From: Syntrophobacterales bacterium
GTDB taxonomy: Bacteria > Desulfobacterota > Syntrophorhabdia > Syntrophorhabdales > Syntrophorhabdaceae
Reading direction: 5' to 3'
Assembly (NCBI GenBank): GCA_031274925.1
Contig: JAISPL010000028.1
Coordinates: forward strand, 1-64,000
Length of the DNA stretch: 64,000 nucleotides
A program made the translations under genes and the position numbers. The notes under the pieces are model-generated. The model saw only the letters and a list, made by a program, of their open reading frames with translations, was not told the origin of the DNA and searched no databases. Position 1 is the first letter of the stretch; the number at the start of each line of letters is the position of its first letter. Shown piece after piece: positions 9,932 through 28,420 of this stretch.

Positions 9932-9993
9932 TTATCAAATATCAGGGTATATCCTTGAGGGTATACCCTGAATGATGAAAGAAGGGGAGGACC

Positions 9994-10521
9994 ATGAAAA
10001 TTAGATCGTTTGGCATTATTGTGTTAGCTCTTGTTCTTGGTACGGTCTTGACCGGCTGTGGTTGTTTTATGCAGGCCCAGAAAGGTGAGGAAGCGCCTCC
10101 ACCTCCTCCAGAGGTACAAGCGGTTGCGCCTGAGGAGGCAAAGGTGGAAACCCCGGTAGCATCAGAACCAGCCCCTGCACCGGAGGCTGTAATGTTGAAA
10201 AGTATAAATTTTGATTTCGATAGATATAATATCAGACCCGGTGACGAAGCAATACTAAAAGAAAACGAGGGTTGGTTTAAGGCAAATCCCGGGAAGAATG
10301 TGAAAATCGAAGGGCACTGCGATGAGCGGGGCACTGTAGAGTACAACTTGGTTCTCGGACAGAAGAGAGCCGATGCGACCAAGAATTACCTTGTGAATCT
10401 CGGTATAGACGATAAAATTCTTGAGACTGTGAGTTATGGCAAGGAAAGGCCCATTGATCCAAGACACAAAGAAGAAGCATGGGCAAAGAATAGAAGGGCC
10501 AATATCGTCCCAGTTCAGTAA
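9994..10521 (+). CDS. pal: Peptidoglycan-associated lipoprotein (Pal, OmpA-like domain)
   Basis: 175-residue outer-membrane lipoprotein that ties the membrane to peptidoglycan as part of the Tol-Pal system. The signal peptide ends in LTGC with Cys22 as the lipidated residue. A Pro/Ala/Glu-rich linker runs to about residue 65, then an OmpA-like domain follows: INFDFDRYNIRPGD, IEGHCDERGTVEYN (meso-diaminopimelate-binding loop) and GQKRADATKNYL, ending in KNRRANIV. It starts at ATG 9994 after GGGGAGG. No tolA/tolB/tolQR genes are nearby in this window, unlike the common arrangement. A 9-bp hairpin follows the stop. Confidence 0.92.
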   Translation: MKIRSFGIIVLALVLGTVLTGCGCFMQAQKGEEAPPPPPEVQAVAPEEAKVETPVASEPAPAPEAVMLKSINFDFDRYNIRPGDEAILKENEGWFKANPGKNVKIEGHCDERGTVEYNLVLGQKRADATKNYLVNLGIDDKILETVSYGKERPIDPRHKEEAWAKNRRANIVPVQ

Positions 10522-13113: not shown

Positions 13114-13830
13114 TTGAGCGGAACGCTCTATGTAGTTGCCACACCGATAGGCAATCTGAAAGATATCACTCTGAGAGCCATTGAGGTTCTTGGGGCTGTG
13201 GATTTTATCGTAGCGGAAGATCGGGATCGCGCCCTTAAGCTTCTGAGTCATCTTGATATAAGAAAGCAGATTATTTCCATCAACAGTTACTCAGAAGAGA
13301 GAAAAGCAAAAGAAGTGTGTGAAAGGATCGAGGACGACAAATCGGCTGCACTCATAACAGCCGCCGGTACCCCATGCGTATCAGACCCTGGAAGGGCTGT
13401 GGTAAACCGGTGCCGCGAAGCAGGAATCGAAGTGACGGCTGTGCCCGGACCTTCAGCTGCAGTCGGGGCTCTCTCTATATCTGGCCTCTATACTGACAGA
13501 TTCTTGTTCTACGGATTTCTTCCTTTGAAGAAAGGGAAGAAGAAGAAGGTTCTTAGAGAGATGGCTCAATTGCCTTATGCGATTATTCTTTACGAATCTC
13601 CCCGGAGGGTGAGAGAGACTCTTCTGGTTGCTTACGAGGAAATGGGAGATCGGGAGGCGGCAGTCTTCAAAGAACTCACCAAAGTCCACGAGGAGGTTTG
13701 GAGAGGCACGTTGGGAAACCTCCTCGTGGACTTTGGTGAAGCCGAGCTGAAAGGGGAGTATGTTCTTATTGTCGGCGGAGCTGCTACTGGGAATGGGAGA
13801 TACAGTAAAGACGAGAATCGACATCCGTAA
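13114..13830 (+). CDS. rsmI: 16S rRNA (cytidine1402-2'-O)-methyltransferase, possibly frameshifted at the C-terminus
   Basis: Tetrapyrrole-methylase-fold enzyme that methylates C1402 of 16S rRNA. Conserved elements are LYVVATPIGNLKDITLRA at the start, VAEDRDRALKLL, ITAAGTPCVSDPGR, VPGPSAAVGALSISG, LYESPRRV and ELTKVHEEV. TTG 13114 follows AAGGAG by eight bases and the family start is at this point. The frame ends after 238 residues, about 35-50 short of the usual 270-290. A second frame that stays open to 13922 reads TSVKLAQDIKTVVASEG, a typical RsmI-like tail, so a frameshift near 13795-13818 is likely. A perfect 24-bp inverted repeat lies inside the gene at 13676-13739. Confidence 0.88.
   Translation: MSGTLYVVATPIGNLKDITLRAIEVLGAVDFIVAEDRDRALKLLSHLDIRKQIISINSYSEERKAKEVCERIEDDKSAALITAAGTPCVSDPGRAVVNRCREAGIEVTAVPGPSAAVGALSISGLYTDRFLFYGFLPLKKGKKKKVLREMAQLPYAIILYESPRRVRETLLVAYEEMGDREAAVFKELTKVHEEVWRGTLGNLLVDFGEAELKGEYVLIVGGAATGNGRYSKDENRHP
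13676..13739. repeat. Perfect 24-bp inverted repeat inside rsmI
   Basis: Positions 13676-13699 and 13716-13739 are exact reverse complements, separated by 16 bases. Both arms encode ordinary RsmI residues (TKVHEEV in the left arm, NLLVDFGE in the right). An exact 24-bp match in coding DNA is far beyond chance and points to template switching or a strong mRNA hairpin. Confidence 0.85.
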
Positions 13831-13943
13831 AGCTGGCCCAGGACATAAAGACGGTCGTTGCCTCTGAAGGAGAGGAAAAAGGCGGGGAAGATCGGGGCTT
13901 CCATCGCAATAAAATGGTGTAATCCAGGCAACTTTAAGTTAAG

Positions 13944-20471: not shown

Positions 20472-22496
20472 ATGATGGAGATTGGCAGAGAAATCCTGTG
20501 GAATGCAGGGGGAGCTGCGCGATGGATAACGTATGCGCTTATGATCCTAACCTTTATCGTTCTGATCATGGGGATTAAGCAGCGCTATGCAATGTGGAAG
20601 ATCGGCAAGGCTGTCCCTATCAATTTCAAGGAGAAGTTAGGCGAGAGAATAGGGTATTTTATCAAAAGCGGTATATTTCATGCCACCATTCTGAGAGCAA
20701 GGGAAGGGTATCCCGGAACCATGCACTTGTTTATTTTCTGGGGGTTCCTGATTTTATCGATCGGAACGGCGCTGGTTGCACTTCAAGATGACGTGATCAA
20801 GCTTATCTTCGGCGTCGAATTCATCAAGGGGGACTTCTACATTGTCTTCTCGTTCCTCCTTGAAGTGGCAGGACTCATGGCAATTATCGGCATCATAATG
20901 GGCATATTGAGAAGGTATGGGACACAGCCATCGAGACTGGACAATAAGCCTGATGACGCGATTACGCTTGTATGGATTCTTGCGGTTCTCGTGACCGGTT
21001 TTCTGGTAGAGGGTGCTAGGATTGCAGCTACCCAGCAACCTTATGAGGTGTGGAGTTTTGTGGGCTGGGTTGTGTCATCGCTTTTCCCTGCTCCGGAGCA
21101 GGCCATTGATGTGGCTACTCATGAGATCGTCTACCTGCCTCACACGGTGCTTTGGTACATACACATGTTGCTGTCGTTCGGTCTTATTGCGTACATTGCA
21201 TACTCACGACGGCTTCTTCACATCATCACCTCCTCGCTCAACATGCTTTTCAGAGGCGTTGAGGATGCACCGAGGGGGGCGGTAGCCGCAATTGAAGATT
21301 TCGAGAATGCAGAGGAATTTGGAGTAAATGCAATAGAAGGATTTACTTGGAGACAAATCATGGACCTTGATGCCTGCACAAGGTGCGGCAGGTGTCAGGA
21401 TCGGTGCCCTGCTTTTAATACGGAGAAACCTCTCTCGCCGAAGAAATTTATTCAGGACCTCAAGGAGGAATGGGAAAAAACTGCGGTGGGTATAAAGAAC
21501 GAAGAGGGCATAGTGGACAATGTGATTCCGGAAGAGACTCTCTGGTCTTGTACAGCCTGTCTAGCGTGTCAGGTGAATTGTCCGGTCTCCATCCCTACCT
21601 TTGACAAAAATCTGGAGATGAGACGGTATCTTACCATGACTTTGAGTCAGGTTAGTTCCGAGATGAAGCTTCTCTATAAAAACCTTCAGCAGAGGTCTGA
21701 TCCGTACGGTATGGGTAAGAGCCAGAGACTTGAGTGGGTTGAAGGACTTGATGTCAAGAAAGCTACCGAGACAGAAGTTGAGTACCTTTACTGGGTCGGC
21801 TGCGTAGCATCCCTTGACGACAGAAACCGGAAGATAGCGAAGGCTGTTTCAACGATATTGGAGAAAGCTGGTGTCTCTTTTGGTGTCTTGGGTCCGGATG
21901 AAAAATGCTGTGGTGACCCGCTGAGAAGGACTGGAAATGAGTACCAGTATATGGAAATAGCGGAAGGCAATATCGGCCTCCTGAATGAGCTTGGAATCAA
22001 AAAGATAATAACCGCTTGCCCGCACTGTTATAACACGCTAAAGAACGATTATCCTCAACTGGGTGGCAATTTTGAGGTCTTCCATCATACGGAATTTATA
22101 GCCAAGCTGGCCCGGGAGGGAAAGATTTCTATTAGCCCGACTCTTGAGGGAATCACAACCTATCACGATCCATGCTACCTAGGAAGAGTGAATCAGATTT
22201 TTGACTCACCGAGAGATGTGGTAAACAAGGTCAACAAGGGGTCCTTTGTTGAATTGGACCGGAACCGAAATGAAGGGTTCTGCTGCGGCGGAGGCGGTGG
22301 AAGAATCTGGATGGAGGAACATCATAAACGGATAAATCACAATAGAATGGACGAAGCCATTGAAATTTCGGCTAATACGGTTATCACTGCGTGTCCTTAC
22401 TGCCTTATCATGATGACGGACGCGATTAAAGACAAGGAAAAGAGCGAGACCATGACGGCCCTGGATATCGCGGAAATAGTTGTGAAAGGCTTGTAA
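20472..22496 (+). CDS. Membrane-bound HdrD-like Fe-S oxidoreductase (ETF:menaquinone oxidoreductase type)
   Basis: 674 residues. The N-terminal ~250 residues are five or so membrane segments of the nitrate-reductase-gamma/HdrE type, expected to carry heme b and react with menaquinone. A soluble part follows: two [4Fe-4S] motifs (CTRCGRCQDRCP and CTACLACQVNCP) and two CCG domains (EKCCGDPLRRTG, then CPHCYNTL, YHDPCYLGR, GFCCGGGGGR, CPYC) that bind noncubane [4Fe-4S] clusters. Proteins of this architecture move electrons from electron-transfer flavoprotein to menaquinone in fatty-acid or benzoate degraders. No etfAB genes are close, so the donor is inferred. AGGAGG precedes ATG 20472; a terminator follows. 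Confidence 0.85.
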   Translation: MMEIGREILWNAGGAARWITYALMILTFIVLIMGIKQRYAMWKIGKAVPINFKEKLGERIGYFIKSGIFHATILRAREGYPGTMHLFIFWGFLILSIGTALVALQDDVIKLIFGVEFIKGDFYIVFSFLLEVAGLMAIIGIIMGILRRYGTQPSRLDNKPDDAITLVWILAVLVTGFLVEGARIAATQQPYEVWSFVGWVVSSLFPAPEQAIDVATHEIVYLPHTVLWYIHMLLSFGLIAYIAYSRRLLHIITSSLNMLFRGVEDAPRGAVAAIEDFENAEEFGVNAIEGFTWRQIMDLDACTRCGRCQDRCPAFNTEKPLSPKKFIQDLKEEWEKTAVGIKNEEGIVDNVIPEETLWSCTACLACQVNCPVSIPTFDKNLEMRRYLTMTLSQVSSEMKLLYKNLQQRSDPYGMGKSQRLEWVEGLDVKKATETEVEYLYWVGCVASLDDRNRKIAKAVSTILEKAGVSFGVLGPDEKCCGDPLRRTGNEYQYMEIAEGNIGLLNELGIKKIITACPHCYNTLKNDYPQLGGNFEVFHHTEFIAKLAREGKISISPTLEGITTYHDPCYLGRVNQIFDSPRDVVNKVNKGSFVELDRNRNEGFCCGGGGGRIWMEEHHKRINHNRMDEAIEISANTVITACPYCLIMMTDAIKDKEKSETMTALDIAEIVVKGL

Positions 22497-22523
22497 AGAG
22501 AAAATTAGAATCTAGAAGGATAT

Positions 22524-22553
22524 AAAAAGGATGGGCCAAGGCCCATCCTTTTT
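22524..22553. terminator. Bidirectional rho-independent terminator
   Basis: A perfect 14-bp stem (22524-22537 with 22540-22553) whose arms begin with AAAAA and end with TTTTT. It serves the oxidoreductase gene on the plus strand and the ferredoxin gene on the minus strand. Confidence 0.9.
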
Positions 22554-22571
22554 ATATTGTAAAAGGCATGC

Positions 22572-28102: not shown

Positions 28103-28145
28103 TCTGACCCCGATACGCACAATGTGACAGAGACAGAGAAGGAAT

Positions 28146-28177
28146 AAAGAATCCCTAGCGTGAGCTAGGGATTCTTT
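28146..28177. terminator. Rho-independent terminator
   Basis: A perfect 14-bp stem (28146-28159 with 28164-28177) with a GTGA loop and a following ATTT run, 43 bases after the phosphoesterase stop. Confidence 0.88.
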
Positions 28178-28420
28178 ATTTGGGTGCTGAGATAAATACC
28201 CGGTGAAGGTTGAGTTTGCGGACAATAACACCACACCTTTCTTACACATAACGCCAACCGCCGGAACAAGATCCGTAACCAATCGGCCATAAAAACCGGG
28301 AGGACTTTCAGTTACACGTGTGAGGTAACGGATCAGAGAGGCTGATTTGAACCTTGAATATAAGGCCTCATCTACGAGTTGGGTGATTTTGAAGATAAAT
28401 TTTAGCGACTTGAAAATCAA
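28178..28420. other. Intergenic stretch downstream of tRNA-Thr
   Basis: Nothing recognised. This is probably the 3' region of the minus-strand tRNA-Thr transcript. Confidence 0.35.

What the first reader, a model, noticed from the sequence alone, without database searches (positions are those of the whole stretch)
13676..13922. Perfect 24-bp inverted repeat and probable frameshift in rsmI
Two exact 24-base complementary arms lie in the coding sequence 16 bases apart. Shortly after, the frame stops early while another frame encodes a normal RsmI-type tail (TSVKLAQDIKTVV). A quasi-palindrome template-switch event could produce the perfect repeat, and frameshifts are frequent near such structures.
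Basis: partly seen in the sequence, partly recalled or inferred. Interest (0 to 1): 0.55.

Follow-up and report, generated by a model that had tools for sequence, protein, structure and literature searches.

The report
Perfect hairpin inside intact rsmI gene
A bacterial housekeeping gene carries a perfect 24-letter mirror-image hairpin, probably written by a replication slip onto a nearby template; the gene itself looks normal and is not broken.

Summary
The inverted repeat is real: 24 of 24 complementary bases, 16-nt loop, wholly inside rsmI (13114-13830), unique in its genome and far beyond chance. It is specific to this lineage: 34 aligned relatives of the same order pair at only 5-13 of the same 24 positions. 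No length change separates the genes, so the repeat was completed in frame, by substitution. The best explanation is quasipalindrome correction by replication template switching, a known process. Protein conservation suggests that arm 2 was the one rewritten; a parsimony count does not settle this.

The frameshift is not supported. All 34 order relatives also end 2-20 residues after the same point. The out-of-frame "tail" matches no RsmI C-terminal model, and the protein scores as well as its congeners' (206 against 206 and 200 bits). The early end is a trait of the clade.

Noticed in passing, and more surprising: a ybgF (cpoB) gene of the same genome has a coding hairpin whose two arms change together across the order. 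This includes codons AGC with GAG and AGT with GAA in 36 of 36 comparable sequences. It points to repeated template switching or to a selected RNA hairpin in coding sequence.

The parts
13114..13830 (+). rsmI, 16S rRNA (cytidine1402-2'-O)-methyltransferase, 238 aa, TTG start as listed, stop TAA 13828-13830
   Evidence: TIGR00096 206.2 bits over the 167.9 cut-off; PF00590
13676..13699 (+). arm 1 of the inverted repeat; lies in codons of the conserved motif E-L-T-K-V-H-E-E-V-W
13700..13715 (+). 16-nt loop, codes within R-G-T-L-G
13716..13739 (+). arm 2, exact reverse complement of arm 1; codes within N-L-L-V-D-F-G-E, a variable stretch in relatives

Best explanation
The repeat is a mutational product in an intact gene. 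An imperfect inverted repeat already lay in this part of rsmI. During replication a stalled strand switched template and copied one arm as the reverse complement of the other, turning an imperfect pair into a perfect 24-bp pair without changing the length (quasipalindrome correction). Arm 1 encodes residues that the whole family keeps and arm 2 a variable stretch, so arm 2 was most likely the arm that received the copy, at the cost of a few amino-acid changes. The short C-terminus is ordinary for this order. Shown: the repeat, its absence in relatives, equal gene length, intact protein family match. Inferred: the template switch, its direction, its age.
For: 24/24 pairing, 16-nt loop; chance expectation 0. 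At the same aligned 24 positions, 34 order relatives pair at 5-13, mean of 1122 mixed arm pairs 9.2 (sd 2.1, maximum 17), and 94 more distant genes at up to 13. No gap between window and congeners across both arms. Arm 1 residues fit the family profile (sum 23.1) while arm 2 residues are the fourth least typical of 35 (sum -1.6; V205 and G201 unseen in 34 relatives). Perfect stems of 15 bp or more are in excess in this genome (9 seen, 0.05 simulated, in 241.8 kb) and in congeners (4 seen, 0.05 simulated, in 200 kb), as a general process predicts. Published precedent for arm homogenisation in coding DNA: PMC8604942 (abstract and introduction read).
Against: A parsimony count on a tree puts 5 changes in arm 1 and 6 in arm 2 on the window's own branch; 95 of 649 windows of 24 nt in the gene have as many as arm 2. 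So there is no burst of change, and the direction is not proved. Reading the printed lines of that call, 4 of the 5 arm-1 changes meet an older base in arm 2, which fits copying in both directions or several steps. The nearest relatives are about 33% different in DNA, too far to date or localise the event. Raw reads were not available.
Confidence: 0.76

Rival explanations
1. Sequencing or assembly artefact: a fold-back chimera wrote the second arm into the contig.
For: The genome is a draft in 57 contigs and no reads could be checked; such chimeras make inverted repeats (general knowledge).
Against: The gene keeps its length and frame and a full family score. A fold-back chimera normally inserts or truncates (general knowledge). 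The repeat sits well inside an 82-kb contig.
Confidence: 0.09
2. A functional hairpin in the rsmI mRNA, kept by selection.
For: RNA fold -49.4 kcal/mol, z -5.3, no shuffle of 200 as good.
Against: Absent in all 34 order relatives compared, with 5-13 of 24 pairs, so it is not a conserved element. No T-run typical of a terminator follows.
Confidence: 0.07
3. A frameshift broke rsmI after the repeat and removed a normal C-terminal domain.
For: Another frame holds SVKLAQDIKTVV near the stop, and many RsmI proteins outside the order do carry a 48-70 residue C-terminal extension.
Against: All 34 order relatives end 2-20 residues after aligned residue 222, the window 16. The peptide has no Pfam match at E 10, although the same library finds RsmI_C in a long relative. 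An RsmI C-tail model built from 79 tails reports no match to it.
Confidence: 0.03

Closest known systems
Quasipalindrome correction by replication template switching (Ripley model; van Noort 2003, known here only as cited in PMC6649704)
   Same: A nearly complementary pair becomes perfectly complementary by local copying, without net length change
   Different: The intermediate is not observed here, the stem (24 bp) is long for a coding region, and the direction is unresolved
Arm homogenisation in yeast coding genes (PMC8604942)
   Same: Template switching between short inverted repeats changes amino acids in a gene that stays in frame
   Different: That work used closely related strains and located each event on a branch; here the nearest relatives are other species
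Coding palindromes of Nematomorpha mitochondrial genes (PMC6649704)
   Same: Perfect inverted repeats inside coding sequence, both arms translated
   Different: Those are many and up to 284 bp; here one of 24 bp in a bacterial gene

Membership tests
RsmI (TIGR00096) | score above the curated equivalog cut-off | tested here: met
   206.2 bits against 167.9; congeners 206 and 200.2
RsmI (TIGR00096) | C-terminal HTH domain (PF23016 RsmI_C), common outside the order but not needed for the cut-off, so not a defining feature of the family | tested here: not met
   absent in the window protein and in the out-of-frame peptide; present in L038; no order relative has a C-terminus as long as the long form
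RsmI (TIGR00096) | 2'-O-methylation of C1402 | not testable with these tools
   needs rRNA modification mapping
Quasipalindrome correction by template switching | perfect pairing where relatives have an imperfect pair | tested here: met
   24/24 here, 5-13 of 24 in 34 relatives
Quasipalindrome correction by template switching | clustered changes confined to one arm on one branch | tested here: inconclusive
   5 changes in arm 1, 6 in arm 2, near the gene average of 3.9 per 24 nt
Quasipalindrome correction by template switching | no net length change, frame kept | tested here: met
   codon alignment without gaps against both congeners

The most novel reading that the evidence does not exclude
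In this order of bacteria, coding quasi-palindromes are repeatedly rewritten by template switching and so shape proteins. rsmI shows a recent completion, and ybgF (cpoB) shows an old one whose two arms have been re-homogenised many times, giving linked synonymous and amino-acid changes that ordinary codon models would misread as selection.
Probability: 0.4. Interest if true: 0.62.

Novelty: new member of a known kind. Interest (0 to 1): 0.36.

Why it matters
It is a clean natural case of a long perfect hairpin completed inside a housekeeping gene without breaking it, and it corrects a tempting but wrong reading (frameshifted rsmI). With the ybgF case it suggests a set of bacterial genes in which template switching, not point mutation, sets pairs of codons.

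Tried and rejected
Frameshift: rejected, see the rival. Repeated element or mobile repeat: rejected, since the arms occur only here in the genome. Chance: rejected. Transcription terminator: the stem is inside the gene and no T-run follows. Homology of the DNA after the stop to congeners: in L002 and L003 only chance-level hits of 11-19 bases at E 7.2; the best hit in another locus, L025 at E 0.004, was taken as chance and not followed. A maximum-likelihood ancestor of the arms was wanted to settle the direction; it was not available. The extra genome sample for stem frequency flags ORFs only from stop to stop, so its 'inside an ORF' label is loose. Paper PMC5941160 (inverted repeats in proteobacteria) is not held; I know it only as a citation in PMC8794818. 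A search for RsmI gene loss found no paper with three of its four terms.

Full report
What is there. The window holds rsmI at 13114-13830 on the + strand: 238 codons, TIGR00096 at 206.2 bits over a cut-off of 167.9. Inside it lie two arms, 13676-13699 and 13716-13739, that are exact reverse complements with 16 nt between them. No match is expected by chance in shuffles of the window, and the arm occurs nowhere else in the genome at up to 3 mismatches. The RNA folds at -49.4 kcal/mol with z -5.3, and the single DNA strand at -28.9 with z -6.8.

Is it conserved? The protein was searched in 60 genomes; 53 have a match. Codon alignment gives arms for 34 order relatives (L002-L035, of 129 complete genes aligned, window included; L137 was dropped because its end is cut). 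These pair at 5-13 of the 24 positions. The 94 genes outside this group pair at 13 at most. Mixing arm 1 of one relative with arm 2 of another gives a mean of 9.2 (sd 2.1, maximum 17, n 1122). The repeat is therefore specific to the window's lineage. In the first 30 genes (L001-L030) the longest perfect stem of any gene other than the window's, at any place and with loops up to 150 nt, is 11 bp.

How it arose. There is no gap between the window and its two congeners across both arms and the loop, so the repeat was completed by substitution, in frame. Arm 1 encodes the family motif ELTKVHEEVW; arm 2 encodes NLLVDFGE, in a stretch where relatives vary. Profile sums are 23.1 for arm 1 and -1.6 for arm 2, fourth lowest of 35. 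Arm 1 is 17 of 24 identical to each congener; arm 2 is 14 and 10. This favours arm 2 as the rewritten arm. Against it, parsimony puts 5 changes in arm 1 and 6 in arm 2 on the window branch, against a gene mean of 3.9 per 24 nt, and gives a parent that already paired at 14 of 24. I therefore hold the process (completion of a quasi-palindrome) as likely and the direction as open.

General rate. In 241.8 kb of this genome 9 perfect stems of at least 15 bp with loops up to 100 nt were seen, against 0.05 simulated by a first-order Markov model. In 200 kb of two congeners there were 4, against 0.05. Some of these are terminators or leader hairpins, so the excess is not all template switching. The rsmI stem is the longest.

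The frameshift. All 34 order relatives end 2-20 residues after aligned residue 222; the window has 16. Of 15 phylum relatives outside the order, 4 are equally short (3-8), 1 has 33 and 10 have 56 or more; of 79 complete genes from the named collection, 8 are short (1-5), 1 has 36 and 70 have 48 or more. The long form carries Pfam RsmI_C (PF23016), as tested on one member, L038. The window's out-of-frame peptide has no Pfam match at E 10. Searched without filters, a C-tail model built from 79 long tails reports nothing for it, although it reports 947 of 1000 shuffles of the same letters; held-out real tails score a median of 41.2 bits and a minimum of 10.4. Congener proteins of the same short form score like the window's (206.0 and 200.2 against 206.2). 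The gene is not shifted; a short RsmI is the rule in this order.

A second, conserved coding hairpin (in passing). The same genome has a 17-bp perfect stem with an 11-nt loop near the 3' end of a ybgF/cpoB gene (L055 11841-11885; TIGR02795 at 107.8 bits, cut-off 90.1). In the 44 of 46 order genomes with the gene the pairing is 5-17 of 17. Where one codon is AGY and its partner GAR, AGC goes with GAG (30) and AGT with GAA (6), with no exception; the other 8 of 44 have different codons. L186 has different letters in both arms and still pairs at 15 of 17. Third-position covariation, measured above column composition, puts this hairpin at the top of 24,042 antiparallel runs of six codons; the only run that scores higher is the same hairpin shifted by one codon. 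Not every pair contributes: two of the six third-position pairs rank only 3218th and 12077th of 28,571. On a tree, 16 double changes keep Watson-Crick pairing; only one of 41,730 placements ties, a shifted copy, and the best elsewhere is 8. Outside the order 26 genes pair at 2-7 of 17, and within it the f3 genomes and genera g2 and g12 pair at only 5-10. This is concerted change in coding DNA, by recurrent template switching or by selection on an RNA hairpin; I cannot tell which.

Known work. Template switching between inverted-repeat arms that changes proteins is described in yeast (PMC8604942: abstract and introduction read), perfect coding palindromes in mitochondria of hairworms (PMC6649704: passages), and creation of perfect RNA stems by template switching (PMC8794818: passages). 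The RsmI structure paper (PMC5053481: passages) used a construct ending at residue 258, so the last residues are not part of that solved fold. A survey of bacterial inverted repeats (PMC10434271: passages) reports them in all species. Full-text searches for the combination with ybgF/cpoB returned one unrelated paper, and for concerted evolution of inverted repeats with template switching and synonymous sites in bacteria three papers, none on bacterial coding hairpins by title and abstract start.

Verdict. A real, striking but explicable feature: a new instance of a known mutational process in an intact gene. The claim of a broken rsmI is not supported.

Noticed in passing
L055 11841-11885 (G000 contig C4, ybgF/cpoB gene); order-wide set L151-L160 and L164-L197: A coding hairpin (17 of 17 pairs, 11-nt loop) whose two arms change together across the order: AGC/GAG 30, AGT/GAA 6, no mixed pair in 36; top of 24,042 antiparallel runs for third-position covariation apart from its own one-codon shift. 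Recurrent template switching or a selected RNA hairpin.
   Followed up: partly
genomes G004, G005, G009, G016, G018, G023 (genera g3, g4, g8 of the same family): rsmI appears lost in three whole genera as sampled (6 of 37 family genomes examined, own included): no match to the window protein and none over the TIGR00096 cut-off; five of the six are 92-100% complete.
   Followed up: partly
window 9942-9971: A hairpin (TCAGGGTATATCCT / AGGGTATACCCTGA) just before the pal-like lipoprotein gene at 9994, conserved in position and nearly in sequence in both congeners: a possible leader element.
   Followed up: partly
window 22520-22557: 18-bp perfect stem with 2-nt loop and flanking A/T runs after the gene ending at 22496; likely a two-way terminator; congener G001 has a similar stretch (73% over 242 bases) with a 16-bp stem.
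   Followed up: partly
window 28143-28180: 17-bp perfect stem with 4-nt loop about 240 bases from a tRNA-Thr gene; probably intergenic.
   Followed up: no
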